NCBI GenBank assembly: GCA_021776335.1
Contig: JAJFGB010000007.1
Location: 372,001-436,000 of the forward strand
DNA: 64,000 nt
Direction: 5' to 3'
Source of the DNA: Hyphococcus sp.
Lineage (GTDB): Bacteria > Pseudomonadota > Alphaproteobacteria > Caulobacterales > Parvularculaceae
The translations under genes and the position numbers were made by a program. Each line of letters starts with the position of its first letter. Positions within the stretch are counted from its first letter, which is position 1. Under the pieces are notes generated by a model, which saw only the letters and a list, made by a program, of their open reading frames with translations, made no database searches and was not told the origin of the DNA. Of this stretch, positions 1-60,285 are shown one piece after another.

Positions 1-417
1 TTTACGGATGATCCGTTTGAGGCGCTGTCGCGCCAGGATATTCTGCAAACAAAATATACCGGCGGCACGGTGCTGCATCTTTATATGAGTGAAAAACTTT
101 CAAGCGCCGCTGCCTGCCGCGAGCTTGTGCGGCGTTCTCTCAGCCGTCACCGTCTGCCGTATATTACGGTGACGCCAACCTTCTCGATTTGCCCACAGCA
201 TGGCTATCTTGCGGGTGAACATGCATTTTGCCCGAAATGCGATGCCGAGGCGCAAGCAGAGGGACGAGATGACGGTTTTGAACGACAGGTTTGCGAAGTG
301 TGGACACGGGTGATGGGCTATCACCGTCCAGTGTCTGCCTATAATCCAGGCAAAAAGTCGGAACATGAAGAACGGGCGCATTTCGTGGAAGAGCGCGCTT
401 TTCGGGACGTCGCATGA
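1..417 (+). CDS. nrdD: Anaerobic ribonucleoside-triphosphate reductase, C-terminal part
   Basis: The reading frame is open from base 1, so only the C-terminal 138 residues lie in the window. NrdD is the oxygen-sensitive class III ribonucleotide reductase, which makes dNTPs with a glycyl radical. The fragment has the zinc-site pattern CPxH followed by CPxC (bases about 190-240). Near the C-terminus is the glycyl-radical motif RVMGY, with the radical glycine codon at 316-318. The stop overlaps the nrdG start by 4 bases (ATGA), so the two are translationally coupled. The product is cytoplasmic. The identification rests on the characteristic FSICP, GYLAGEH and RVMGY blocks, and I am confident in it. 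Confidence 0.93.
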   Translation, partial: FTDDPFEALSRQDILQTKYTGGTVLHLYMSEKLSSAAACRELVRRSLSRHRLPYITVTPTFSICPQHGYLAGEHAFCPKCDAEAQAEGRDDGFERQVCEVWTRVMGYHRPVSAYNPGKKSEHEERAHFVEERAFRDVA

Positions 418-1121
418 GTGCTGATTGCGACCCAGCCGGCCTGCGCGTCGGGGGTTTTTTACCATTCACAATGGTCGATTACCCTGATGCGCTCGCCGCC
501 ATTATTTTCTGTCAGGGTTGCCCGCTAAAATGCGTCTATTGCCACAATCCGGACCTGATGCCGGCATGTGGCAGACGCCGGATCGAATGGCGCGACATCC
601 ATAAGCATCTCGTCCGGCGCGCCGGTCTGCTTGACGCCCTTGTTTTTTCCGGCGGTGAGCCGTTGATGCAAAGCGCGCTTCCCGCAGCAATGAGCGCAGC
701 AAAAAAGCTTGGCTACAAAATTGGCCTACACACATCCGGCATTGCGCCGGAACGGCTGCGCGAGGTTTTGCCGCTTCTCGACTGGGTTGGCTTTGATGTG
801 AAAGCGCCATTCGACAGATATGAAACGATCACCGGCGTTGCCGGCTCCGGCGAGAAAGCGCGGCAATCTCTGACGCTGCTCGCGGCGGCCGAAATCCCCA
901 CCGAAGTGCGCACGACGATCTGGCCCGGTCACGTGGATACGAATGAGCTGCGTGAAATCACAAGCGACGTGAAGCAAATGGGCATTCAAAGTTTTGCGGT
1001 GCAAGAAGCGCGCGATCCGTTAACCAGTATACCAAAGGGCGGCGAGATATTTGACGATCCGGTGCTGCTATCTGCGTTCGCTGGCAAATTTGCAGACTTC
1101 ACGCTTCGCCGTGCTGCCTAG
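414..1121 (+). CDS. nrdG: Anaerobic ribonucleotide reductase activating protein (radical SAM)
   Basis: This 235-residue radical SAM enzyme uses S-adenosylmethionine and a [4Fe-4S] cluster to install the glycyl radical in NrdD. The cluster motif CxxxCxxC is visible as CPLKCVYC near residue 40. It is followed by the SAM-binding FSGGEP motif near residue 80. The length fits the longer NrdG form found beside nrdD in many proteobacteria. The start is fixed by the ATGA overlap with nrdD. No further gene follows in the same orientation for more than 1 kb, so nrdD-nrdG is probably the whole operon here. Oxygen-responsive control is expected, but the promoter lies upstream of the window. Confidence 0.93.
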   Translation: MSADCDPAGLRVGGFLPFTMVDYPDALAAIIFCQGCPLKCVYCHNPDLMPACGRRRIEWRDIHKHLVRRAGLLDALVFSGGEPLMQSALPAAMSAAKKLGYKIGLHTSGIAPERLREVLPLLDWVGFDVKAPFDRYETITGVAGSGEKARQSLTLLAAAEIPTEVRTTIWPGHVDTNELREITSDVKQMGIQSFAVQEARDPLTSIPKGGEIFDDPVLLSAFAGKFADFTLRRAA

Positions 1122-1197
1122 TGCGGCGCCATGCGCTTTACCTGCGTGAATCAGAAATCACGGCCTGTGTTTAATGTGATTATTCGCTGGCCGTACC

Positions 1198-1884
1198 TCA
1201 AATACCAATACTGGATTTGGTTCTGCGGCGCGCGGCGCCGAGGCCAGCAAGCCCTACCAAAAACAGCGGCAGCGCAGCGGGGAGCGGGACGTCAGAAACG
1301 CCGCCAAGTTGAGTGATCCTATAATTAGCAGTAGCGACTACAGGAATGTTTATACCGTCGAAAATAAATGTACGTAGACTAATTGTTGCGGCAACAAAAT
1401 CACTTAATTGAAGACCGGCGGGAATAGAGCCATCGGAAAAAGCGGTTCCCGTCGGATCAAAAAAGTCAAATAGGATCGTATTATAAAAACCGGCAGGGTC
1501 AGTGCCGATTTGGGGGCTGCTGTCAGTCGCACCAAATTGATCCGAGCCATTGGCAGCAAGGTCATTGATTACAATCAATTGACTCTGAAAATCGGGATTT
1601 GCGGTCGAAAATTGGTCTAGTAAAATATCAACCCCTCCTGCGGAGTATACAAAAATTCCTCTGGGATCTGAAAAGCTCAGCTGCTGTGACGTGTCATATC
1701 TGATCATTCCCGTAATGGTTTGAATCGGGACAGCTTGATTTACAAAGCTGCCGGCTGGCAGACCAGCCGTGTTCCTTACGGACCGTTGCGTTGCCGTAAA
1801 ATCAATTGTCACAATTGCGGCGCTGCACGCAACTATCGCAATTAAATTGAAAATAAAGCCAAAACAAATCGCTCGAATGCTCAT
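1198..1884 (-). CDS. VPLPA-CTERM sorting-domain protein, function unknown
   Basis: This 228-residue exported protein has an N-terminal hydrophobic signal (residues 3-22) and a Ser/Thr/Asp-rich middle without a domain I recognise. Its C-terminus has the layout of the PEP-CTERM superfamily: VPLPAALPLF, a hydrophobic stretch, GLAGLGAARRR and a few polar residues. VPLPA-type tails are known substrates of a dedicated exosortase (XrtD type), which removes the tail and usually delivers the protein to the envelope or an exopolysaccharide matrix. No exosortase is in this window. The start is an ATG with an AGGGAT ribosome-binding site. Biological function is unknown; the sorting class is well supported. 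Confidence 0.8.
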   Translation of the reverse strand: MSIRAICFGFIFNLIAIVACSAAIVTIDFTATQRSVRNTAGLPAGSFVNQAVPIQTITGMIRYDTSQQLSFSDPRGIFVYSAGGVDILLDQFSTANPDFQSQLIVINDLAANGSDQFGATDSSPQIGTDPAGFYNTILFDFFDPTGTAFSDGSIPAGLQLSDFVAATISLRTFIFDGINIPVVATANYRITQLGGVSDVPLPAALPLFLVGLAGLGAARRRTKSSIGI

Positions 1885-2326
1885 GATAATCCCTATTGAT
1901 TCGATTTTTCGTCTATTGTTCTATCAGATCACCTATTATTTATCCGGTCCACAAGATTCTATAGATGCCTTTGCAACCGTTTGGAGAATTCTAGATTGAT
2001 AGGATCCCAGAGCATGCGAATGACCTGCCGATAAACTCTCCAAGCCGGCGGGTGCGGCGTCAAATAATTATACTTGGCTGATTTGCTTCTTGCAGAGGAT
2101 CTCGCAGGCTCCGCAATCGATGCCAGCGCAAAAAAGGGCAACTTGATTGTGATCGCGGTTTTGGCGCCCTGATTGCGGCTAATACCGAGCCAGTTATTGA
2201 TGCAGGTCAAATGATTGGCCTCGGTCTATTCCAGAATGCGCGTGAATTGAGATGAGACCGTTGAGGCATGCGCCCCGGCGGTCAGTGCCATGCGCGCTTG
2301 TGCGTTGAGTTCAGGGGAGGCGAAAG
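1885..2326. other. 442-base intergenic stretch with no clear gene
   Basis: This lies between the divergently transcribed VPLPA-CTERM gene and the dioxygenase-Rieske gene. It presumably contains both promoters, but I see no convincing -35/-10 pair. A plus-strand frame from about 2145 to 2255 reads like coding sequence (GFGALIAANTEP and on to a TGA) but has no start or known relative. It may be a gene remnant. A minus-strand frame at 1959-2210 is not supported. A strong ribosome-binding site (GGGGAGG) sits at 2314-2320, just before the next gene. Confidence 0.4.
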
Positions 2327-3607
2327 ATGCAGCCAAAATATACCGAGATCGCCAAAGACGAACCCATTCCGATGGGGTTGACGGAGAAAGTCATTGAGGG
2401 CGAGGTGTTCGTCATTCGCGGCTGTCTGCAAAGGCTTGGCGTTTTTGACGAAATCGCGGCGACCAGCATTGCCGGCATTCGCGACGCCGCTGGCGCTGAA
2501 GTCGTTGGAAAAATAAAGCGCGAAGGGTTCGATGCGATCCACCGTTTCGCCAGCCTTGATCAGATCGAAACGGCGACAGACAAAATCTACGAACACGCCT
2601 GCGATAAGGCACCGGACTGGGTTTCGAAAATTGCGCCGGGCCTGCTCGGTATCACAGAGCCCTATTTTTTCGAGCGCGGACCCAATATCCGTTTTCATGT
2701 GCCTTATGACATTATGGCCAGCAACGTGGAGGCGATGGACCGCTTTGCATCGAAGTCAGGCGGCGGTAAGCTGGCGCCGCATCCGAACCATCGCGACAGC
2801 TGGGTCGGCTGTCCGGATAATCTCATTAATATCTGGGCGGCGGTAGGTCCGATCCCCGAGGGCAATGGGCTGACGCTGTTTCCCGACGCTTTCACGCGTG
2901 ATGTTGCGCGCGTCGGCGCATCGATCGCTTTTGATGAAAACCCCGGCGAGCCGCTCAATTTTAATCTCGAGCCGGGCGATACGATCGTGTTTCACGGAGA
3001 GCATGTTCATTCTTCTGTGCTCAACCGCACTGACGGAACCCGGCATGCGGTCAGTTTTCGCATCGTAAAAGAAAAACCACATTTTCCCAACACGCATTAT
3101 CATCGCTATGCGCATTCTTCTCTTGCGGGCGGACCGCTCGACTTTTTTGCTGAGCTGCCGGCAAATTTGGCGTGGAGTTATGTGGAAACGCGCCTTGGCG
3201 GCGCTGCAAAGAAACTCGGCCTCAAAAAAGAGGAACCTCAACGGCAAAACCGCAGCCATGCGAGCCAGGACAAAAAACCCTTGGGCGGCAAGCGCACATT
3301 CAGCCTGTCGTCGCTGCCTGAAAATTCACTACACGCAATCACTGATGAGGTTTGTGTCGCGCGGATCGGTAAAGACAAAATCGCCGCCTTTGACCGTAAA
3401 TGTCCCCATGGCGGCGGCGACCTCGCTTTGGGCGTCATTCTCGATGGGGAAATTACGTGTCCCTGGCACAATCTTCGTTTTGATCCAAAGACTGGCGCCA
3501 GCGCCTGTCAGACCCTGAAAAGGGTGCGTATGTATGACATCAATGTCGAAGGCGATGATGTGACAGTGTCGCTTGATAATCCACACGCGCCGGCGGCGAG
3601 CGGCTAA
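2327..3607 (+). CDS. Fused 2-oxoglutarate/Fe(II) dioxygenase (PhyH-like) and Rieske [2Fe-2S] protein, copy 1
   Basis: This 426-residue protein joins two metal domains. Residues about 20-270 look like a phytanoyl-CoA dioxygenase-type cupin. The HxD iron motif is H155-R-D157, the distal histidine is H228 in the GEHVHSS segment, and R239 or R245 could bind 2-oxoglutarate. After a charged linker (about 295-325), residues 326-415 form a Rieske ferredoxin domain with C359-P-H361 and C378-P-W-H381. The family predicts oxidation of an unknown substrate; the Rieske domain could deliver electrons or hold the iron reduced, which is inference. No signal peptide is seen. Its stop is immediately adjacent to that of the convergent racemase-like gene. 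A paralogue with the same order lies at 58853-60127. Confidence 0.8.
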   Translation: MQPKYTEIAKDEPIPMGLTEKVIEGEVFVIRGCLQRLGVFDEIAATSIAGIRDAAGAEVVGKIKREGFDAIHRFASLDQIETATDKIYEHACDKAPDWVSKIAPGLLGITEPYFFERGPNIRFHVPYDIMASNVEAMDRFASKSGGGKLAPHPNHRDSWVGCPDNLINIWAAVGPIPEGNGLTLFPDAFTRDVARVGASIAFDENPGEPLNFNLEPGDTIVFHGEHVHSSVLNRTDGTRHAVSFRIVKEKPHFPNTHYHRYAHSSLAGGPLDFFAELPANLAWSYVETRLGGAAKKLGLKKEEPQRQNRSHASQDKKPLGGKRTFSLSSLPENSLHAITDEVCVARIGKDKIAAFDRKCPHGGGDLALGVILDGEITCPWHNLRFDPKTGASACQTLKRVRMYDINVEGDDVTVSLDNPHAPAASG

Positions 3608-37180: not shown

Positions 37181-38224
37181 TTAGCTGCGCGTTACATCCT
37201 GGGCTGGCTCATTGAGGCTGCGTGTATCGCGCACATTGAGCTCGCGCTCATAATCCATTGTTGAGCTGTAACGTTCCCGCGCAATGTGGAAAACAGGCCG
37301 ACGATTTGTCGTTTCCAATATCTGCAGGAGATATTCACACATGACCGCCAATACGAGGCTGATGAAAAAGAAAAGTACTGACACCTGAAGAGATAACGTG
37401 GCCCAACCTGGCGCGACATTATCGGCCAAAATCCGCGTCAACACGATATAGATCGCATACACAATTGATGCGATGCTCATACCTACAGACAACAAGGAGA
37501 TCAGGCGAAGCGGACGCACTGACGTGGAAAATACAAGGTCAAGCGCCTTGATCAACGCCTGCAATCCAACTCGCCGATTCTTGGCGTCAGGTCGTTCTAG
37601 TCGTTGGTAATTTACTGAAGCGTAGCTATAGCCGGATAGGGCTGGCGCCAGCGCAAGCGTGCGGTGGAAGTCTCGCGATTCCAGCATGTAATTTAATACG
37701 CTTCGACTGAATACGCGGAATGTCGACATGGTTTCAGGCACATTGACATTGTTAAATCGCGCAACGGACCGAAGAAACAAGCGCGCCATGTGGTCGTAAA
37801 AACGCGTGCCCTCCACCCGATCATCCGACAGTCCATAGACGATTTCAGTTCCGGCAACTGCCTTGGCGACCAATTCCGGAATTATCGCAGGTGGGTCGAG
37901 TTTCAGATCCATCGTCACGATGAAATCGCCAATGGTTCGTTCTACGCCTGCGGCAAAAGCGGTGCTTTCATTTACACGTACGGAAAGTGCGCAATATTGA
38001 ATATTCTTGTGCGTCTCCAGCAAGGACGGGGCGAGCGCCGCCGTTTCGTCGGTGGAGGCGTTATCGATCAGAATGATTTCATAGTACTGAAAATGCTCTC
38101 TCAATACATTGGATAAAGCGTCCAATTTTTCCGGAAGCGTCTCTTCCGTATTTCGGAGCATACATACAACCGACACAAACACGTCCCGGCGCGACAGCGT
38201 TGAAATTGAAGACTTGTCACTCAT
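37181..38224 (-). CDS. GT2 family glycosyltransferase with C-terminal membrane segments
   Basis: A 347-residue protein with an N-terminal GT-A domain (VSVVCMLRN, IILIDNASTDET near residue 51, MDLKLDPP in place of DxD). Two membrane helices follow near residues 245-265 and 285-310, the layout of GtrB/ArnC-type polyprenyl-phosphate glycosyltransferases. It overlaps the upstream FAD-oxidoreductase gene by 8 bases, so the two are coupled. Probable role: transfer of a sugar to a lipid carrier on the cytoplasmic face. Confidence 0.82.
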   Translation of the reverse strand: MSDKSSISTLSRRDVFVSVVCMLRNTEETLPEKLDALSNVLREHFQYYEIILIDNASTDETAALAPSLLETHKNIQYCALSVRVNESTAFAAGVERTIGDFIVTMDLKLDPPAIIPELVAKAVAGTEIVYGLSDDRVEGTRFYDHMARLFLRSVARFNNVNVPETMSTFRVFSRSVLNYMLESRDFHRTLALAPALSGYSYASVNYQRLERPDAKNRRVGLQALIKALDLVFSTSVRPLRLISLLSVGMSIASIVYAIYIVLTRILADNVAPGWATLSLQVSVLFFFISLVLAVMCEYLLQILETTNRRPVFHIARERYSSTMDYERELNVRDTRSLNEPAQDVTRS

Positions 38225-39350
38225 CTAGGTCTAGCGTCCCTGATATCACGCGGAGAACATCAAATATGTTATCAATTTTTCCGCCGAGGATCGATATAAA
38301 CCTTTCCATAGCCGGGTCACGGTGGAATGCAATGGGGCGTGCATCGTCAATCTGCGTGTCTTCCAAGGTCGTTTTGATTTCGAACAGACTGTCTTCGTAC
38401 TCAGCATTTTCCAGGACCGGCAAATAACGTGCGGAATCGCGCAACATCCATTCATATCGTGGTGATTTTGCGTGCTCAGTCAGTACTTTGTCAGGGTCCA
38501 TGTCTGGCGCATCTTGTTCGTGCCATGTGAAATGGGGCGTGTATCGCACATGCGACAAGGAATGCGTGTTTCGAGCGGGAAATGGCATGGTTGAAAAGAA
38601 GGGACCGTCCATGACGGTAACACCGACATTTTCAAGTATTTCGGGAACACGGAGCAGGCAAATCTCCGTCACTTGATGTCGTAGACTAACGGGGCGGGTG
38701 CTTTTCTTGTCTGTGAATTGGTTCAAATTCGCATAGGTGGTGTTGAAAACCCAAGGCGCTGAGAGCGTTTCAGTGTTTTGGGCGGCGTCATCACCAACAG
38801 AAATGCGCGCTGTGATTTCATGCGCGCTGGCTTTTTCAACGTCGTCGACTTTTGTGTTGAGCCGAATATCGACACCGGCGGCGTTCAACTTACGTAAGAG
38901 AACGTCTCGAAGGGCTTTGGCGTCAAACGCGAATTCTTCACACTCATAAACCGCGCTAATCGTGCGTGATGAAAACAGCTTTTTCAGTTGTTTTTCAGGC
39001 GCACGCAGCGGCAGGTTAATCTGTCGGCAAAATCGTTCGAAATAGCTGCTGGTGACTTTGGATCCGTTTGCGGCGATTGCATAAAGGCAGGTAAAGCTGG
39101 AATCGATGCAGTCATCGTAAAACTCTCGAAACTCGATGAGGTTTTGAGCGCTGCTGGCGGCGGTCTGGAGACTCCGCGGATAGTGATATCCTGTATGCAC
39201 GCGCGCCTGATTGACATAGGACGCTCGTTGCAAAAGGTCGCTTTTTTGCTCGACCAGCGTCACCTTGTAATTATGCTGGGTGAGAAATAGCGCAATGACG
39301 CAGCCGTAAAAGCCGCCGCCAATGACAAGAGCGTCCACTTTATCTGTCAT
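38217..39350 (-). CDS. FAD-dependent oxidoreductase (DAO-like) of the glycan locus
   Basis: A 377-residue protein with an N-terminal FAD-binding Rossmann motif (VIGGGFYGC, residues 9-17, with the acidic end in VTLVEQK). It also has the RVHTGYHYPR segment near residue 50, seen in amino-acid-oxidase-like proteins of polysaccharide clusters. A mixed alpha/beta substrate domain follows. The substrate is unknown; oxidation of a sugar or amino sugar is an inference from context. It is coupled to the GT2 gene downstream through an 8-base overlap. Confidence 0.8.
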   Translation of the reverse strand: MTDKVDALVIGGGFYGCVIALFLTQHNYKVTLVEQKSDLLQRASYVNQARVHTGYHYPRSLQTAASSAQNLIEFREFYDDCIDSSFTCLYAIAANGSKVTSSYFERFCRQINLPLRAPEKQLKKLFSSRTISAVYECEEFAFDAKALRDVLLRKLNAAGVDIRLNTKVDDVEKASAHEITARISVGDDAAQNTETLSAPWVFNTTYANLNQFTDKKSTRPVSLRHQVTEICLLRVPEILENVGVTVMDGPFFSTMPFPARNTHSLSHVRYTPHFTWHEQDAPDMDPDKVLTEHAKSPRYEWMLRDSARYLPVLENAEYEDSLFEIKTTLEDTQIDDARPIAFHRDPAMERFISILGGKIDNIFDVLRVISGTLDLDE

Positions 39351-49193: not shown

Positions 49194-49256
49194 AGGCGTT
49201 GTCGGCGCAAATAGGGCATGGAGCCCGTTAATGGGCATATTGGAGACCAAAATTTC

Positions 49257-51248
49257 ATGCCAACCGCGCCGATCACAAACCCATCAGACGATGCGAAGCC
49301 GACAGCTTCGCCATGCGTTGTTTTGCAAGTGGGCGAACATTCCGCCTGGCCCACAGTCCGTGAGGCCGGCGTTGTGCGGCTTACCGGTGCGCCGCACATC
49401 TGGGCGTCGGTTGATCCTGATGATTTGGCCCGCGCCGTCGGTAATCTCCCTAAAGAGGCGACAATTTGCCTTGAAGTGGAAGCCATGTCGTGGGCTGAAA
49501 GTCAGGCTGCATTCGAGCGTATCGGTGGGATTTACAAGAACTATTCAGATCGCGCTTATGTTGCATTTGAAATTGCATCGGATGAAACGCTTTATGGTTT
49601 TGAAGCAAAACAAAATGGACGCGCTGAATTTCTAGCGGCCGCTGCTTCTTATTTTCGTGATTGCGGGGCGTTGGTTCGGTGGTTCGTTCCGCTCACTCAG
49701 GAATTTGTGCACAAGCTCGAAGCATTTTATTCGCTGGCGCAGGAACTGGAAGTTGAGGCGGTGATCGCGCGTGCAGAAGCGCACGGTCTCAATGCGAATG
49801 ACCGCTTATTCGCGGACGACTTTATTCGCCACAATATTCTTGAGGAAAAGAGCGGCCCGCTTGGCGCTGAACAGCGACAAGCTTATGGCGTGATCTTGGC
49901 CGCTCTTGAGAGCGATGATGTGGATGCAATTAATGGCGCCTGTTCATCTCTTTTGTGTTTCAGACAGCAAACGCCGTACCGCCGCCCACAGAGCCCGGGC
50001 GCCAGCTTTTTGCTGGAAGCTGCCGGCGTTTTGATTGATGGCGCTCGCGCGCATATCAGCCGCACGTTTCTATCCGGCAAGCAGCGTGATGCCGCCGCAA
50101 TTTCGACCCGTTTTGAAAAAGTGCTGCTGATCGGCGCATATGGAGGGGAGCACATTGGCGACGCTGCAATTCTCGGAGGCGTCGCGTTTCGGCTGAATGC
50201 ACGCCATGGCGTCAAAAAAGCCATTTTGATGAGCCAGCGACCTGCCCATACCAAGCATCTAATGCCAATGATTGAAACGCCTGTTACGATCGATGTGCGT
50301 GAATATCGCCATGACGAAATTGACGCCTGCATCGATGAAGTGGACGCCGTTGTTTTTGCGGGCGGGCCAATCATTGACCTACCCAAACAACTCGTTCGTC
50401 ATCTTTATGCTGTTGCAAAAGCGAAAGCGCGCGGTAAGCCATTTTTAATGGAGGGTGTAGGTCCGGGTCCGTTTCAACGCCTCCCATCAAAGCTGACGGC
50501 GCGACAATTTATTAATCTTGCCGATTATATTTCGCTACGCACACAGGACAATGCGAAAGAGGCCATTATTAAAGGCATTGATGTCGAGATTGGTCGCGAT
50601 CCCGCGTTCGATTATCTCGATACGCGGCAAGGCGAATTGTCGAGAATGGCGCCGAATGAAGTTACCGAGATCGAACGCCTTCTTGACGGTGCAGGCGATC
50701 GCCCTGTTATTGGCGTCAACATCAGGCCTATCTATCATCATTATACGGCCGGGGTGAAAGCTGAGGACAAGGCTTCCTATACGGAAATGGTTGAAGATCG
50801 CTTTGAGCGCAGGCTGGCGGAAGCGCTTACGCAATTCAGCGCAAATAGTTCAAAAAAGCCGATCATCGTATTTTTTCCGATGAACGCTGTGCAATTTGGT
50901 CTATCAGATCTCAAAAGCGCTTATCGTATCAGCCGGCATTTGGGCGCCGATATCGATTTTCGCGTTTGGGAGGCTGATGCCACGCTCGATGGCGTATTGG
51001 CGCTAATTCGTCGTCTTGATGTTGCCGTAACAATGCGCTTTCACGCGACTATCTTCGCGTTAAGTCAGGGAATAGAAGCAATTGGGGTGGATTATCGCAT
51101 CGGCGAGCGCGACAAGGTTGCAGCCGTTCTTAGCGATGTCGGCAAAGGCGATCAGTGCGCGCGTATCGATGAGATGACCGCGGAATGGATGACTGGTCAG
51201 TTTAAGCGTTTCGTGGGGCGTTCAACTGATGAACTGAAAACAGGCTGA
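49257..51248 (+). CDS. Polysaccharide pyruvyltransferase-family protein with extra N-terminal domain
   Basis: From the ATG at 49257, which has GGAG upstream, the protein has 663 residues; an ATG at 49218 would add 13. The C-terminal 370 or so residues form a polysaccharide pyruvyl transferase domain: LLIGAYGGEHIGDAAIL (near residue 284), VVFAGGPIID, GVGPGP, the GVNIRP block, and VTMRFHATIFALSQGI near the end. These enzymes add pyruvate ketals to sugars. The first 280 residues are not part of the known domain. They look like an alpha/beta barrel half (CLEVEAMSW, VEAVIARAEAHG) and could be a radical-SAM-like fold that has lost its cluster cysteines, which is speculative. Confidence 0.8.
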   Translation: MPTAPITNPSDDAKPTASPCVVLQVGEHSAWPTVREAGVVRLTGAPHIWASVDPDDLARAVGNLPKEATICLEVEAMSWAESQAAFERIGGIYKNYSDRAYVAFEIASDETLYGFEAKQNGRAEFLAAAASYFRDCGALVRWFVPLTQEFVHKLEAFYSLAQELEVEAVIARAEAHGLNANDRLFADDFIRHNILEEKSGPLGAEQRQAYGVILAALESDDVDAINGACSSLLCFRQQTPYRRPQSPGASFLLEAAGVLIDGARAHISRTFLSGKQRDAAAISTRFEKVLLIGAYGGEHIGDAAILGGVAFRLNARHGVKKAILMSQRPAHTKHLMPMIETPVTIDVREYRHDEIDACIDEVDAVVFAGGPIIDLPKQLVRHLYAVAKAKARGKPFLMEGVGPGPFQRLPSKLTARQFINLADYISLRTQDNAKEAIIKGIDVEIGRDPAFDYLDTRQGELSRMAPNEVTEIERLLDGAGDRPVIGVNIRPIYHHYTAGVKAEDKASYTEMVEDRFERRLAEALTQFSANSSKKPIIVFFPMNAVQFGLSDLKSAYRISRHLGADIDFRVWEADATLDGVLALIRRLDVAVTMRFHATIFALSQGIEAIGVDYRIGERDKVAAVLSDVGKGDQCARIDEMTAEWMTGQFKRFVGRSTDELKTG

Positions 51249-52519: not shown

Positions 52520-53587
52520 TCATAGCGCGTTTCGATAGTCCTCAAGCTGATTTGAAAGCATTGCGGCAGCTTCCAGCGGCTGCTCATAATAGGCTGCGTA
52601 CCATTCAGCGGTGCGCCGCACCGTCTCTTCGGTGGTCCAGGGCGAACGGACGCCGAGGCGGGTCGCCGCCTTGTTGGTGTCGAGTTTCAAGATGTTTGCC
52701 TCAGTAAGATGTGACGGCTCGACGACAACTTCCGGGCGCGCGGAATGTTGTCCCAACAGTTCGATGATCTCGCCGACACTGACGGGGGTAGGATCGGTGG
52801 GGCCGATGTTCCAGCTGGTGGATATGTCGGCGCTCTTCTGGTTGAGGAGATCAGCCGCAATCGCGAGATAGCCATGGCAGGCGGAGAGCACATGCTGCCA
52901 CGGCCTTATTGCGCCGGGATTTCTAATTTTCAGTGCGTGGCCGCTGGTGAGCGCACGATAATAATCAGGCACAATTCTATCTTCAGACCAATCACCGCCG
53001 CCAATAATGTTGCCGCCGCGCGCTGTCGCAATCCGTGCGCCATTGCCAAGTCCTGTCATCGTTTGTTGATAGCAACTGGCCACAAGCTCTGCGCAGGCTT
53101 TGGATGCGCTATAGGGATCCTTGCCGCCCAAACGATCATCTTCATTGTAAGGGTCGGGTGACTCACGGTTCTCATAGACTTTATCTGTTGTTATGCAGAC
53201 GACGGCTTTGACGCTTGCAACAGATCGCGCTGCTTCGAGGACACTTGCTGTGCCCAACACATTTGAAGCGAAAGTTTCCAGTGGATCGCGAAAAGACCGC
53301 CGGACAAGCGGCTGAGCAGCGAGGTGAAAAACGACGGAGGGTTGTGCAGCCTCCATCGCTTTTTTCAAGCGCGTATGATCGGTGATGTTCGCAATATCAT
53401 GTTGCGCATATCGATTGGCGCCTTCAAGAATCGAGAAAAGATTCGGTGTTGTTTCCGGGGCGAGGCTGTAACCCGCGACCGAGCAGTTCAGCGCGTTAAG
53501 CCATTCAGCGAGCCAGCCCCCTGTAAAGCCGGTATGACCTGTCAGGAATACAGGTTGATTTCTTAGCGACTGCTCAAATTCCGCCAT
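52520..53587 (-). CDS. rfbG: CDP-glucose 4,6-dehydratase
   Basis: RfbG turns CDP-glucose into CDP-4-keto-6-deoxyglucose. The 355 residues start with the NAD-binding TGHTGFTGGWLAEWL, which is characteristic of this dehydratase. The catalytic triad region is CITTDKVYE with Y-S-A-S-K (near 160-164), and RGGNIIGGGDWSEDR is also typical. It lies 37 bases upstream of rfbF on the same strand. rfbH (ddhC), the next enzyme in 3,6-dideoxyhexose routes, is not in the window. Confidence 0.95.
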   Translation of the reverse strand: MAEFEQSLRNQPVFLTGHTGFTGGWLAEWLNALNCSVAGYSLAPETTPNLFSILEGANRYAQHDIANITDHTRLKKAMEAAQPSVVFHLAAQPLVRRSFRDPLETFASNVLGTASVLEAARSVASVKAVVCITTDKVYENRESPDPYNEDDRLGGKDPYSASKACAELVASCYQQTMTGLGNGARIATARGGNIIGGGDWSEDRIVPDYYRALTSGHALKIRNPGAIRPWQHVLSACHGYLAIAADLLNQKSADISTSWNIGPTDPTPVSVGEIIELLGQHSARPEVVVEPSHLTEANILKLDTNKAATRLGVRSPWTTEETVRRTAEWYAAYYEQPLEAAAMLSNQLEDYRNAL

Positions 53588-56631: not shown

Positions 56632-57897
56632 GTGATTTCGGTAGAGAAACAAACAGCCCAGAGCATTGACAGCTGCCGCCTATGCGGCGGCGCGCTTGGG
56701 CCTGTCGCACTTTCGCTTGGTGATCAACCAATCTCCAATCGATTGCCGCGCGAGGCGGAAGCGGCCCCGCGATATCCGTTGGAAGTGGCGTTGTGCCAAT
56801 CATGCGGCCTTGTTCAACTCGCGCATCATATCGATGCGGATGAGCATTTTCATGATGACTACACATATCTTTCCGGCGCCTCGAAGACATGGGTCGCGCA
56901 TTGTGCGGATTATGCTGATGATGTTTCAGCAAAATACGGTGTTGAACCGGGCGACCTCATCGTCGAAATTGGATCTAATGACGGCACGCTGTTAGCGGCG
57001 TTACAAAAGAAAGATCACCGGGTTCTTGGTGTCGAGCCATCCCGAAATGTGGCGGACATTGCAAACAGTAATGGCGCGCCCACGATATCAGCATTTTTCA
57101 ATCATGAAACGGCGACGCGCATCAAAACCGAACATGGCGCCGCGAAGCTTGTCATCGGCAATAATGTATTGGCGCATGTGCCGGATACAAATGGATTTCT
57201 GCTTGCTGCCCGGGACCTGATTGGCGAAGACGGTATTCTTTGTTTTGAATTCCCGCATTTCGTAAACATCATCGAGAAGATGTATTTTGATACGATTTAT
57301 CATGAACATTATGCGTATCTCGGCGTTAGTCCGCTTGCTCATTGGGCGCGTCGCAATGGCATGGTGATTGTCGGCATTGACGAGCAATCAACCCATGGCG
57401 GTACGCTGCGCGTCTTGATGAAACGCGGTGATGATACAGTTGCGTCAGGCGCTGTCGCTGCCATGATCGAACGCGAAGCGGCTTATCAAAATGACGAAGC
57501 CTGGCGCGACCTTGGTGCGCGGCTGGAGGAATGGCGCGGTCGTTTTCACCAACTCCTCCGGGAGCAGCGGGCTGAGGGGAAACGCATTGCGGGCTATGCC
57601 GCCGCTTCCAAGGCGACGGTTCTTTTAAATTATCTTGGTCTTTCTTCGGACGATATCGAATACTGCTGTGACGCCAGCGCGCTTAAGCAGAACCGCTACA
57701 TACCAGGCGCAAACATTCCCATTGTCGCGCCGGACAGGCTGAAAGTTGACTGCCCGGACGCCATTGTGGTGTTTGCCTGGAATATTTTTGATGAGCTTCG
57801 AGAAATTGTCAGTTCTTACATCACCAAACCGGTGGAAATGATCAATCCATTTCCTGATATAAAAATGCTTACGGTCTCGCCGGAAAGCGAATCATGA
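56632..57897 (+). CDS. Zinc-containing SAM-dependent methyltransferase (sugar C-methyltransferase type)
   Basis: A 421-residue protein with the three-part plan of NDP-sugar C-methyltransferases. The N-terminal zinc-binding segment has CRLCG (near residue 16) and CQSCGL (near 57). The SAM-binding domain has VEIGSNDGTLL (near 110). The C-terminal Rossmann-like domain has IAGYAAASKATVLLNYL (near 320) and an end with NPFPDIK. These enzymes methylate 4-keto-6-deoxy sugars at carbon, so it probably acts on the RfbG product. The start is a GTG. It overlaps the next GT2 gene by 4 bases. Confidence 0.88.
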   Translation: MISVEKQTAQSIDSCRLCGGALGPVALSLGDQPISNRLPREAEAAPRYPLEVALCQSCGLVQLAHHIDADEHFHDDYTYLSGASKTWVAHCADYADDVSAKYGVEPGDLIVEIGSNDGTLLAALQKKDHRVLGVEPSRNVADIANSNGAPTISAFFNHETATRIKTEHGAAKLVIGNNVLAHVPDTNGFLLAARDLIGEDGILCFEFPHFVNIIEKMYFDTIYHEHYAYLGVSPLAHWARRNGMVIVGIDEQSTHGGTLRVLMKRGDDTVASGAVAAMIEREAAYQNDEAWRDLGARLEEWRGRFHQLLREQRAEGKRIAGYAAASKATVLLNYLGLSSDDIEYCCDASALKQNRYIPGANIPIVAPDRLKVDCPDAIVVFAWNIFDELREIVSSYITKPVEMINPFPDIKMLTVSPESES

Positions 57898-58856
57898 AGA
57901 AAAAACTGTCCATCATTTCGCCGGTATATAATGAAAGCGCTGGTCTTGAGATTTATTTTGCTGAAGTCAGCAAACTGATCGAGACTGAAGAATTCAAGCC
58001 CTATGACATTGAAATTATTTTGGTCGATAATGCGTCAACTGATGATTCAGCGAGTTATCTGGAGACGATCGCAAAAAAAGACTCTCGGTTCAAAGTCATT
58101 TTTAATGCGCGCAATGTCGGCGTCTTTCTTTCATCGTTTAATGCTCTTTCCTTTGCCAAAGGCGATGCGGTCTTCCTGATGGTGCCGTCGGATTTACAGG
58201 ATCCGATAGAGATAATGGGAGATATGATCAGGAAATGGGAGGAGGGCTATCTTGTTGTTGCCGGGCGCCGCGCCCAGCGCCAGGAGGGCGCAATGATAAG
58301 ATTTCTGCGCGCGCAGTTTTACAATTTGATGGCGAAAGTCGCTGAGCAGCCGATGGAACCTGGCGTGGGCGAATTTCAACTGGCGGACCGTCGCGTCGTT
58401 GATGAGCTTTTGAGCATACCTGATGCGGCGCCGTATATTCGTGGTTTGCTCGCCGAGCTTGGGTACCGCCCCTTCATTATCGACTATGAATGGAAAGCGC
58501 GCGATTGGGGCAAGTCAAGTTTCAGTTTGGGCAAACTCTTCCGCACCGCCTATGACATGATCTTTTCGTTTTCTCGATTGCCCCTGCGGTTGATTATGAT
58601 CCTGGGATTTATCATCGCCGGGATCAGCGTTTTATTCGGCCTCTTTCAAATTGCGCTGGTCCTCATTCAGGGGACTGTGGCCGGTCGGGGTATCACGACA
58701 GTGATCACGGCGTTGTTTTTCTTCTCGGGTATCAATGCAGTGTTCATGGGTATCATCGGGGAATATGTCGGCCGGATGTATCAACAGATGCGTTATGGTC
58801 GGCGCGTTGCGGTTCATCGCCTTCTTAACTTTGATGGCGAGAACAGCGACGGCTAG
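57894..58856 (+). CDS. GtrB/ArnC-like GT2 glycosyltransferase
   Basis: A 320-residue protein with an N-terminal GT-A domain (LSIISPVYNES, IILVDNASTDDS near residue 44, MVPSDLQDP with its Asp pair near 100). A basic amphipathic region and two membrane helices follow near residues 233-255 and 270-292, as in enzymes that load polyprenyl phosphate with a sugar. Such proteins pair with GtrA-type flippases. It is translationally coupled to the C-methyltransferase-like gene. Its stop shares the sequence CTAG with the stop of the convergent dioxygenase-Rieske gene. Confidence 0.87.
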   Translation: MKKKLSIISPVYNESAGLEIYFAEVSKLIETEEFKPYDIEIILVDNASTDDSASYLETIAKKDSRFKVIFNARNVGVFLSSFNALSFAKGDAVFLMVPSDLQDPIEIMGDMIRKWEEGYLVVAGRRAQRQEGAMIRFLRAQFYNLMAKVAEQPMEPGVGEFQLADRRVVDELLSIPDAAPYIRGLLAELGYRPFIIDYEWKARDWGKSSFSLGKLFRTAYDMIFSFSRLPLRLIMILGFIIAGISVLFGLFQIALVLIQGTVAGRGITTVITALFFFSGINAVFMGIIGEYVGRMYQQMRYGRRVAVHRLLNFDGENSDG

Positions 58857-60127
58857 CTGGTCTGTGAAGCGACTTCTATCGCTGTGGGATCAATAACGAT
58901 CTCGTCGCCAATGATTTCACATTTTACCCGGCGGATTTGCGCCAGCGTTTTGCAAGGTGAGCGACCGGTTTCCGCATCAAACGGCAAATTATGCCAGGGG
59001 CACGTGATGGCGCCTTTATGAACCCAGCCATTGGCGAAATCGCCGCCGCTATGGGGGCATCGGCGCGTCACTGCGATCGCTTCATTGTCCGAAAGTCGCG
59101 CAACGCAAAGAGCGGGATTGACGCCGCGTATGGCGCCCACAGGCGCCGCCTTTATGGGAACATATAATTTGCCGTCTCGCTCCACGCCTATTTCTTCCGG
59201 CGGTGCTGCAATTACTTCCTTTTTAGGGCTGGGCGACAGCCTCTCGCGAAGGCGCCAGGGCAGGGTTCGTACAAAGCTCGGCTGCATCATCGCGGGCAGG
59301 CGCGCTAGAAATTCAAGTGGCGTTTCCATCATGTCAGCGTTGACATATTTGTGAAAATGGCGGTTTGGAAAAACCGGTTTTCCAAATGACATCCGAAATG
59401 AGATGACGAACCGTGTTTCGTTGATGCGGTTAAGCTCGGAGCCGTGAACCTGGTCGGTGTGAAACATCACGCAGTCGCCTGGCGCCAGATCAAAGGTCAT
59501 GGGCCGCTGGAGTTTTTCCCCTTCAGCAATGTCGCCGCTTTCCTTGTAAACAAAATCGCCGTTGTAATCGCTTTGATAGACGGTGAGGCCATTGCCTTTA
59601 CGAACGGGCCCGACAGCAAACCATAAATTGACGCCATTTGAGGGGCAGTCGAGCCAGGAATCGCGATGCGGACCGTGGGCAGTGATTTTGCCTTCGCCAT
59701 AATTTTTTGAAAATGACTTGAAGGAATCTTTCTGGGCGCGCGCCAGGTCGTAAGGGATATGGAACCGGACATTTGGCGTTTCTTCGTAATAGAGCGTTTC
59801 CGCGGTAGGAAACGCCTCCTTTACAAACTGCTTCAAAAATGCCGGGGCTAAGGGTTTGATGGCTTCATATACAGCGTCGGTCAGGGCAGGAATATCGGCT
59901 GGCGCAACCCAATCATGAATATGCTGGAAGCCTTCAGTCTCGGCGCGGCGCGCTACCTCGTCGCCCGCACCCTTTCGGATGCCATCGACGCTGGTTGAAA
60001 TCAGCGTGTCAAACAACTTGAAGCGATCATGAGCGCCACGGATGACAAAAACCTCGCCATTGAGTGCGCGTTCAACAAGGTTGTTATTTGCCTGTGTGTC
60101 GTCACCAAATTGAATTTCTGTGGCCAT
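58853..60127 (-). CDS. Fused 2-oxoglutarate/Fe(II) dioxygenase (PhyH-like) and Rieske [2Fe-2S] protein, copy 2
   Basis: I use the ATG at 60127 (424 residues), which has AAGGAA upstream; the frame is open to 60178. The plan is the same as in the protein at 2327-3607. In the cupin domain the iron ligands are H154-R-D156 and H228 (TDQVHGSEL). A linker follows around residues 295-325. The Rieske domain has C357-P-H359 and C376-P-W-H379. Long blocks match between the copies (GEVFVIRG, HRDSW, CPHxGGDFANG, TCPWHNL). This copy ends tail to tail with the glycan GT2 gene, so sugar or lipid modification is a possible role. The substrate is unknown. Confidence 0.8.
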   Translation of the reverse strand: MATEIQFGDDTQANNNLVERALNGEVFVIRGAHDRFKLFDTLISTSVDGIRKGAGDEVARRAETEGFQHIHDWVAPADIPALTDAVYEAIKPLAPAFLKQFVKEAFPTAETLYYEETPNVRFHIPYDLARAQKDSFKSFSKNYGEGKITAHGPHRDSWLDCPSNGVNLWFAVGPVRKGNGLTVYQSDYNGDFVYKESGDIAEGEKLQRPMTFDLAPGDCVMFHTDQVHGSELNRINETRFVISFRMSFGKPVFPNRHFHKYVNADMMETPLEFLARLPAMMQPSFVRTLPWRLRERLSPSPKKEVIAAPPEEIGVERDGKLYVPIKAAPVGAIRGVNPALCVARLSDNEAIAVTRRCPHSGGDFANGWVHKGAITCPWHNLPFDAETGRSPCKTLAQIRRVKCEIIGDEIVIDPTAIEVASQTS

Positions 60128-60285
60128 GGCCGTTTCCTTGGAGTTAATCATACCGCCCCGACACTCACGCGCTTGCACACTGAAGAAGTCACAAAGATGA
60201 ATCCGTACCCAGCATGCAACATAGTTGCCGACACCGGAATCAAAAAGTTTGCGTGATCGGCCGGTTTGTCGGCAATTTACTGGTT

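What the first reader, a model, noticed from the sequence alone, without database searches (positions are those of the whole stretch)
2327..3607. Dioxygenase and Rieske domains fused in one protein
Seen: complete ligand sets for two different iron centres in one chain, HxD...H of a 2-oxoglutarate cupin (H155, D157, H228) and CxH...CxxH of a Rieske cluster (C359, H361, C378, H381). Known: Rieske oxygenases normally pair the Rieske domain with a helix-grip mononuclear-iron domain, not with a PhyH-like cupin, and 2OG enzymes normally need no electron-transfer partner. Inference: the Rieske part may supply electrons to rescue the ferrous centre or to run an uncoupled or different oxidation. This is my best candidate for an undescribed enzyme type.
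Basis: partly seen in the sequence, partly recalled or inferred. Interest (0 to 1): 0.78.

Follow-up and report, generated by a model that had tools for sequence, protein, structure and literature searches.

The report
Iron oxygenase with built-in electron feeder
One bacterial protein joins an oxygen-using iron enzyme to a small iron-sulfur electron carrier; the same pairing recurs in distant bacteria and, as two separate genes, in large phages, so the carrier probably feeds electrons to the enzyme, though what it acts on is unknown.

Summary
Window 2327-3607 (+) encodes 426 residues: a PhyH-type Fe(II)/2-oxoglutarate (2OG) domain (H155, D157, H228, and the 2OG arginine R239) followed by a Rieske ferredoxin domain (C359, H361, C378, H381). 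It is not a one-off: a 37% paralog lies in the same window (58853-60178, -), and I found 20 fusions in five clades, rare and scattered. All these residues are invariant in the 20 fusions and in two large virus contigs, where the same two domains are separate genes of one gene run. In 5 of 7 loci of one clade a cytochrome b561 gene follows directly. 16 of 20 fusions and both viral pairs lie among surface-polysaccharide genes; P0001's own clade (3 loci) does not. Best reading: a 2OG oxygenase whose iron is re-reduced by its own Rieske module. Bolder: the reaction is redox-neutral for the substrate (for example sugar epimerisation), needing two outside electrons per turnover. One bacterial relative lacks the Rieske part. 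No enzyme of this architecture turned up in my searches of open-access papers. Electron transfer, 2OG dependence and substrate are inferred, not shown.

The parts
2327..3607 (+). PhyH-Rieske fusion gene (P0001), 426 aa
   Evidence: ORF; Pfam PhyH and Rieske both above cut-off; purifying selection
2327..3106 (+). N-terminal helices plus PhyH-type Fe(II)/2OG domain, about residues 1-260; H155 (2789-2791), D157 (2795-2797), H228 (3008-3010), R239 (3041-3043)
   Evidence: (H228 and R239 align with a His and an Arg of human PAHX 2a1x)
3107..3286 (+). linker, about residues 261-320; predicted with low confidence (269-319 pLDDT under 50)
   Evidence: 119 residues lie between R239 and C359, 115-120 in 16 of 16 members of clades A-D and 87 in 4 of 4 of clade E
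3287..3589 (+). Rieske ferredoxin domain, about residues 321-421; C359 (3401-3403), H361 (3407-3409), C378 (3458-3460), H381 (3467-3469), invariant non-ligand C394 (3506-3508)
58853..60178 (-). paralogous PhyH-Rieske fusion (P0002), 37% identity; start more likely at the ATG at 60127 than the GTG at 60178
57894..58856 (+). family 2 glycosyltransferase beside the paralog; a gene of the same BLAST cluster is adjacent to the fusion in 4 of 5 clade B loci and three genes away in the fifth
   Evidence: Pfam PF00535; neighbourhoods
56632..57897 (+). sugar C-methyltransferase type protein (Methyltransf_13 + Methyltransf_14), same gene group as the paralog
   Evidence: same BLAST cluster (C8) in 5 of 5 clade B loci
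52520..53587 (-). CDP-glucose 4,6-dehydratase, same gene group
   Evidence: NCBIfam TIGR02622, 407.5 bits against cut-off 278.45
49218..51248 (+). protein with polysaccharide pyruvyl transferase domain, same gene group
   Evidence: PF04230
2197..2210 (+). FNR-box-like palindrome (one mismatch) about 117 bases before the P0001 start; suggestive only

Best explanation
P0001 is a single-chain Fe(II)/2-oxoglutarate oxygenase with its own electron donor. The PhyH domain binds Fe(II) through H155, D157 and H228 and 2OG through R239, activates O2 and abstracts a hydrogen from a substrate (inferred from the conserved site). The Rieske [2Fe-2S] domain, on a long linker, takes single electrons from an outside donor and passes them to the mononuclear iron, returning Fe(III) to Fe(II) (inferred). 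In one clade the outside donor is probably the membrane cytochrome b561 encoded next door (inferred from gene order). For most of the family the substrate is probably a sugar or lipid-linked sugar of a surface polysaccharide (inferred from neighbours); for P0001 itself the substrate is open. Shown: the architecture, its conservation, the split form in two virus contigs and the gene neighbourhoods.
For: Complete and invariant ligand sets for both centres in 22 of 22 rows, together with R239; R239 aligns with an arginine of human PAHX, solved with iron and 2OG (its 2OG role is recalled). Both domains under purifying selection. In virus contigs L040 and L042 the same PhyH (258 aa) and Rieske (81 aa) proteins are separate genes: in L040 stop and start overlap (ATGA) with GGAGG before the start; in L042 a sulfotransferase gene lies between them (Pfam). 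The pair therefore stays together when not fused. L042's contig holds a terminase large subunit (E=6.4e-143) and portal gene (E=1.2e-116), so it is a tailed phage; L040's contig rests on its IMG/VR class and its gene likeness to L042. A prokaryotic cytochrome b561 gene follows the fusion directly in 5 of 7 clade D loci and lies 5.1 kb away in 1 of 5 clade B loci. Surface-polysaccharide genes lie near 16 of 20 fusions: 5 of 5 in clade B, 7 of 7 in D and 4 of 4 in E (Pfam on representatives, the rest by BLAST cluster), and near both viral pairs. Precedent that a 2OG enzyme with a redox-neutral step depends on an outside reductant: PMC9184523 passages. Precedent for a 2OG enzyme acting on a surface-glycan sugar: KdoO, PMC8533242 passages.
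Against: No biochemistry. A PhyH-only relative without any Rieske motif in its 12.7 kb stretch exists (Embleya plasmid, L024:5908-6879), so the PhyH domain may not need the Rieske part. A clade D cytochrome found no homolog in the window genome at E<=0.001 (the tool warns that an empty answer alone proves little); the genome's two PF01292 proteins lie elsewhere, so the donor for P0001 is unknown. Clade A (3 loci, P0001's own) and clade C (1 locus) show no recognisable polysaccharide group, though two of these contigs end close to the gene (L006, L021) and L010's contig is 9.2 kb. The models do not fix the domain arrangement. Clade E has a shortened Rieske domain that ends 10-11 residues after the last ligand. 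4 of 15 scanned fusions score below Pfam's PhyH cut-off.
Confidence: 0.62

Rival explanations
1. The Rieske domain is needed in every cycle because the reaction is redox-neutral for the substrate (epimerisation or isomerisation). O2 takes four electrons, 2OG gives two, the substrate gives none net, so two must come from outside; the Rieske domain supplies them.
For: Electron bookkeeping from established 2OG chemistry. CarC is described as limited to a single turnover because its Fe(III)-OH is not reduced, and vindolinine synthase needs ascorbate (PMC9184523 passages). CarC, SnoN and AndA are isomerising 2OG enzymes (PMC6030086 passage); AndA is among the PDB sequences matched by the family's PhyH profile (E=3.4e-4). 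Of 21 bacterial members found, 20 carry the donor, and both virus contigs have it as a neighbour gene; the searches used two-domain queries, which favours fused forms. Glycan neighbourhoods, where epimerisation is common (general knowledge).
Against: No direct evidence for an epimerase; hydroxylases of the same fold are matched at least as well (PAHX, MysH). An unfused relative exists.
Confidence: 0.25
2. A convergent Rieske oxygenase: the PhyH-type pocket has given up 2OG and takes both electrons for O2 activation from the Rieske cluster, as ring-hydroxylating oxygenases do.
For: Same ligand types as a Rieske oxygenase (2-His-1-carboxylate iron plus Rieske cluster) in one chain.
Against: The presumed 2OG-binding arginine R239 is kept in 22 of 22 rows and in the Rieske-free Embleya relative; S or T at H+2 is kept in 22 of 22 rows as well (read off the alignment).
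Confidence: 0.1
3. The Rieske cluster is a sensor or structural module (redox or O2 sensing, or docking), not an electron donor to the iron.
For: P0001 and its ortholog L006 lie beside low-oxygen genes (NnrS-like, HemN-like and a Crp/Fnr-type regulator, and in the window also NrdD and NrdG2) with an FNR-box-like site upstream. Clade E has a shortened Rieske domain.
Against: All four ligands are kept in 22 of 22 rows, including the free ferredoxin-like genes of the virus contigs; the b561 neighbours fit electron transfer.
Confidence: 0.1
4. Ordinary joining of two unrelated proteins with no functional link.
For: Gene fusions do occur at random.
Against: Five clades, near-constant spacing in A-D (115-120 residues), purifying selection on both domains, the same pairing unfused in two virus contigs.
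Confidence: 0.03

Closest known systems
PhyH family Fe(II)/2OG oxygenases (PF05721; human PAHX, PtlH, AndA, SptF, MysH)
   Same: HxD...H iron site, arginine 11 residues after the last histidine, predicted barrel-type fold match, Pfam score above cut-off for P0001
   Different: Here a Rieske domain is fused or encoded next door, and an N-terminal helical region of about 110 residues precedes the core. That the named enzymes lack an electron-transfer domain is recalled, apart from their chain lengths of 268-319 residues
Rieske ferredoxins of oxygenase systems (NdoA, TodB, CarAc, BphA3 types)
   Same: CxH-x16-CxxH in P0001, Pfam PF00355 above cut-off, fold match 3dqy TMt 0.78
   Different: Not a free ferredoxin in the bacteria but the tail of a 2OG-type enzyme; scores far below the NCBIfam cut-offs of the named ferredoxins
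Rieske non-heme iron oxygenases
   Same: A Rieske cluster and a 2-His-1-carboxylate iron in one chain
   Different: Catalytic domain is PhyH-type and N-terminal, not helix-grip and C-terminal; no Pfam hit to a helix-grip catalytic domain up to E=10
KdoO, 2OG-dependent Kdo 3-hydroxylase of lipopolysaccharide
   Same: 2OG enzyme acting in surface-glycan assembly (PMC8533242 passages)
   Different: No Rieske domain mentioned in the passages seen; sequence relation not tested
TIGR04324, sporadic carbohydrate cluster 2OG-Fe(II) oxygenase
   Same: 2OG oxygenase model named for carbohydrate clusters; weak hit E=0.014
   Different: 15 bits against a cut-off of 150: not a member

Membership tests
PhyH (PF05721) Fe(II)/2OG oxygenases | Pfam score above gathering cut-off | tested here: met
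   P0001 32.1 bits against 22. Of the 19 other fusions 14 were scanned: 10 above the cut-off, 4 below (L010 18.8, L021 21.7, L023 17.3, L049 20.1); 5 were not scanned
PhyH (PF05721) Fe(II)/2OG oxygenases | HxD...H iron ligands and 2OG-binding arginine | tested here: met
   Invariant in 22 of 22 rows; H228 and R239 aligned with 2a1x
PhyH (PF05721) Fe(II)/2OG oxygenases | Double-stranded beta-helix (cupin) fold | tested here: inconclusive
   Foldseek finds Fe/2OG dioxygenases, but with poor superposition and low pLDDT around the HxD
PhyH (PF05721) Fe(II)/2OG oxygenases | 2OG-dependent turnover | not testable with these tools
   Needs enzyme assay
Rieske [2Fe-2S] domain (PF00355) | CxH...CxxH ligands and Pfam score above cut-off | tested here: met
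   40.9 bits against 20.3; above cut-off in 15 of 15 scanned fusions and in both viral Rieske proteins; ligands in 22 of 22 rows
Rieske [2Fe-2S] domain (PF00355) | Rieske ferredoxin fold | tested here: met
   3dqy TMt 0.78, rmsd 2.3
Rieske [2Fe-2S] domain (PF00355) | A [2Fe-2S] cluster that transfers electrons | not testable with these tools
   Needs spectroscopy
Rieske non-heme iron oxygenase | Helix-grip catalytic domain after an N-terminal Rieske domain | tested here: not met
   No such Pfam hit up to E=10 and reversed order
TIGR04324 SpoChoClust_2 | Score above curated cut-off 150 | tested here: not met
   15 bits
Named Rieske ferredoxin equivalogs (HcaC, AndAb, NirD, MocE) | Score above curated cut-offs | tested here: not met
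   26 to 40 bits against 74.65 to 150

The most novel reading that the evidence does not exclude
A class of oxygenase not yet described: 2OG enzymes with a built-in (or, in phages, neighbour-encoded) Rieske donor, fed in some bacteria by a membrane cytochrome b561, that carry out redox-neutral radical chemistry such as epimerisation on surface-polysaccharide sugars, with two electrons from outside per turnover.
Probability: 0.18. Interest if true: 0.87.

Novelty: new variant of a known kind. Interest (0 to 1): 0.64.

Why it matters
2OG oxygenases are usually thought to need no dedicated electron-transfer partner; many need ascorbate in the test tube, and what replaces it in bacteria is often unclear (general knowledge). 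A family with a conserved electron donor built in makes that question testable with one purified protein. If the reaction is redox-neutral it would also give a self-sufficient catalyst for a kind of chemistry that in CarC is described as limited to one turnover (PMC9184523 passages). The phage form gives a two-gene version in which enzyme and donor can be mixed and left out separately.

Tried and rejected
Tried, with little or no yield. Plasmid records: 17 matched P0001; 16 only in the Rieske part (9 of these annotated nirD) and 1 only in the PhyH part. Phage records: no match for P0001 or for the L040 PhyH protein. Phylum sample: 14 of 398 genomes had a hit, but 12 matched only the Rieske segment and were dropped from the family (I read ORFs of 5 of these 12 and Rieske stretches of 3 more), leaving the own genome and G573. 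A viral scan with a clade D protein found nothing. phrog_2 found no terminase in the two virus records; another PHROG did in a fetched stretch of L042's record. PHROGs know neither viral protein: one weak hit, E=6e-4, to a family of unknown function.

Considered and rejected. C394 as a signature of this family alone: it is invariant in 22 of 22 rows, but a cysteine stands at or next to that place in the Rieske domains of two FAD-type proteins (L029, L032) and in two oxygenase ferredoxins (5bok, 2qpz; alignments). FNR control of P0001: FNR-like sites at up to two mismatches are no commoner in the window than in shuffles (36 against 35.2); in L067 two exact sites stand against 0.42 expected at up to one mismatch, and 11 of 200 shuffles reach two, so this stays suggestive. 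Distance between the iron sites: no coordinates were available. The second model, of P0002, was weaker (mean pLDDT 64.7, pTM 0.52). Origin of the fusion: in the Rieske tree the deep branches are weak, clade D falls on the outgroup side at 39/16 support, and clade B holds at only 73/66; in the PhyH tree the Embleya and virus rows fall near clades C and D on long branches. A single origin is neither shown nor excluded.

Full report
What is there. Window 2327-3607 (+) is an open frame of 426 residues. Pfam finds Rieske (E=1.9e-10) and PhyH (E=1.7e-7), both above cut-off, and two further Rieske models below their cut-offs. H155, D157, H228 and C359, H361, C378, H381 are in place. A profile of the family's PhyH part aligns H228 and R239 with a histidine and an arginine of human phytanoyl-CoA hydroxylase 2a1x, a structure with iron and 2-oxoglutarate; that these are its third iron ligand and its 2OG-binding arginine is recalled.

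It is a family. The window itself holds a second copy at 58853-60178 (-), 37% identical along its length. Genome searches gave matches in 4 of 60 relatives, 7 of 62 in the family, three of them of the distant clade D form, 5 of 385 in the class, 4 of 147 in the family of the distant genome G573, 2 of 5 (family of G285), 1 of 2 (family of G267) and 1 of 295 (family of G646). These counts overlap and include the own or centre genome where it carries the gene. In the phylum sample 14 of 398 genomes rang, but 12 only with a Rieske segment, leaving the own genome and G573. One named genome contig, Roseovarius aestuarii, holds a 58% relative. That makes 20 fusions: clade A (P0001, L006, L010), B (P0002, L007, L008, L009, L020), C (L021), D (L015, L016, L017, L022, L023, L047, L049), E (L026, L043, L044, L045). 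The clade letters are mine. B, D, E, A and the viral pair each form one group in both domain trees; weakest are A in the PhyH tree (49/98) and B in the Rieske tree (73/66).

Conservation. In the alignment of 22 rows (20 fusions, 2 viral pairs) 21 columns are invariant, among them H155, D157, H228, R239, C359, H361, C378, H381 and a further cysteine, C394. L043 was read from the first start codon of its frame (261 residues; open frame 395) and so lacks the N-terminal part. Between R239 and C359 lie 115-120 residues in 16 of 16 members of A-D and 87 in 4 of 4 of E. dN/dS between P0001 and L006 is 0.10 overall, 0.12 for the PhyH part and 0.064 for the Rieske part; between P0002 and L009 it is 0.12 overall, 0.092 and 0.148 (dS is near or above 1, so these are rough). 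Both domains are kept by selection.

The split form in phages. A scan of viral contigs with the family alignment found one contig (L040, 210 kb), and a scan with its PhyH protein a second (L042, 184 kb). In both, the PhyH protein (258 aa) and the Rieske protein (81 aa) are separate genes in one run of genes (Pfam). In L040 they overlap by ATGA with GGAGG ahead. In L042 a sulfotransferase gene sits between them, so a simple frameshift or assembly error is an unlikely cause. Stretches of the L042 contig hold a terminase large subunit, a portal protein, a phage-type DNA polymerase and tail-fibre matches; L040's contig was not checked in this way beyond its IMG/VR class and shared genes. Two proteins that are fused in bacteria and near neighbours in phages are likely to work together; I take this as the strongest argument that the Rieske part serves the PhyH part.

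Electron source. In clade D a prokaryotic cytochrome b561 gene follows the fusion directly in 5 of 7 loci: L015, L016, L017, L023 by Pfam PF01292 and L047 by BLAST cluster; not in L022 or L049. In clade B one of five loci (L008's contig, L053) has such a gene 5.1 kb away. A membrane cytochrome that takes electrons from quinol could feed the Rieske domain (inference; the quinol role is recalled). In the window genome a clade D cytochrome found no match at E<=0.001 (with the tool's warning that an empty answer alone shows little), and the two PF01292 proteins lie far from both copies.

Neighbourhoods. These were compared by BLAST clusters, with Pfam or NCBIfam on representatives. Clade B: glycosyltransferase 2, C-methyltransferase and epimerase-type genes in 5 of 5 loci, and a gene of the broad dehydratase cluster, identified in the window as CDP-glucose 4,6-dehydratase, in 4 of 5 (the fifth contig, L054, ends before that place). 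Clade D, six loci: a glycosyltransferase 4 in 6 of 6, a polysaccharide flippase in 5, a methyltransferase in 5, a pyruvyl transferase in 4 and a polysaccharide deacetylase in 4; the seventh, L022, has NeuB, DegT and GT28-type genes. Clade E: a polysaccharide flippase directly adjacent in 4 of 4 and a sulfotransferase in 3 of 4. Virus contigs: a pyruvyl transferase next to the Rieske gene in both, and a methyltransferase-like gene (by eye) before the PhyH gene in both. That is 16 of 20 fusions and 2 of 2 viral pairs. Clade A, to which P0001 belongs, is different: I recognised no polysaccharide genes beside P0001, L006 or L010, though L006 lies at a contig end. Nor beside clade C's L021, also near a contig end, where an AMP-binding enzyme and a DAO-type flavoprotein were identified. 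P0001 and its ortholog L006 share HemN-like, Crp/Fnr-type and NnrS-like genes, and P0001 follows nrdD and nrdG2. HemN, NnrS and NrdD are names given by eye; NrdG2 and the Crp-type regulator rest on models. An exact FNR-type palindrome lies about 135 bases upstream of L006's start and a one-mismatch site about 117 bases upstream of P0001's.

Fold. The AlphaFold model of P0001 (seven rows; viral PhyH tails were partly misaligned into Rieske columns) has mean pLDDT 71 and pTM 0.62; the N-terminal helical part and most of the Rieske part are confident, the HxD stretch 140-161 and the linker 269-319 are not. Foldseek gives SptF- and PtlH-type Fe/2OG dioxygenases for the N-terminal part and Rieske ferredoxins for the C-terminal part. 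A flexible tether would let the Rieske domain move between donor and active site (inference).

Mechanism. A normal 2OG hydroxylation needs no outside electrons: 2OG gives two, the substrate two (general knowledge). A dedicated donor is useful either to rescue Fe(III) after side reactions or when the substrate gives no net electrons. The second case is known: PMC9184523 (passages) reports that vindolinine synthase needs ascorbate for a redox-neutral reaction and describes CarC as limited to one turnover because its Fe(III)-OH is not reduced; PMC6030086 (one passage) lists CarC, SnoN and AndA as isomerising relatives of its enzyme. I give general re-reduction as the main reading and per-turnover supply for a redox-neutral reaction as the bold one. 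A 2OG-free Rieske-type oxygenase is unlikely because R239 is invariant, also in the Embleya protein that has no Rieske domain. That unfused relative (L024:5908-6879) is the main observation against an absolute need for the Rieske part.

Known or new. Searches of 5.39 million open-access papers for Rieske with phytanoyl-CoA dioxygenase, PhyH, 2OG dioxygenase or ferredoxin terms showed no description of such a protein. I saw listings only, capped at 25 of 41 papers and 10 of 392; passages were read in PMC10598087, PMC3475032 and PMC3704786, where the two families appear apart. Two listed papers that hold both terms, on saxitoxin genes (PMC2684587) and on Pandoraea (PMC5987411), were not opened. 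Subscription papers and architecture databases were not searchable. The parts are known and the combination is not one that I could find characterised; hence 'new variant of a known kind'.

Noticed in passing
window 1-2326 and L072 9514-19121: Low-oxygen gene group upstream of P0001 (HemN-like, Crp/Fnr-type regulator, NnrS-like, NrdD-like, NrdG2); the first three also flank the ortholog in L067. An oxygen-using enzyme among low-oxygen genes, with an FNR-box-like site upstream, is unexplained.
   Followed up: partly
L040 and L042 (IMG/VR contigs, 210 and 184 kb): Large phages with genes for glycan modification (pyruvyl transferase; a sulfotransferase in L042; methyltransferase- and glycosyltransferase-like genes by eye) around the PhyH and Rieske genes.
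   Followed up: partly
L026, L043, L044, L045: Clade E Rieske domains end 10-11 residues after the last ligand yet keep the C394-type cysteine and have another cysteine three residues after the last histidine; whether they hold a stable cluster is open.
   Followed up: no
window 38217-39350, L054 9791-10933, L055 7830-9077: Related DAO-type FAD oxidoreductases (57% and 25% identical to the window's) occur in or beside three fusion loci, directly upstream in L055; possible alternative electron donors.
   Followed up: partly
window 61407-63911: 834-residue fusion of an NAD-dependent sugar epimerase/dehydratase with a flavin amine-oxidase-like domain, 68% identical to a protein in a clade D locus.
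   Followed up: no
L003, L004: Two own-genome proteins carry a Rieske domain behind a multi-helix region that looks like a ferric-reductase-type membrane domain (read by eye).
   Followed up: no
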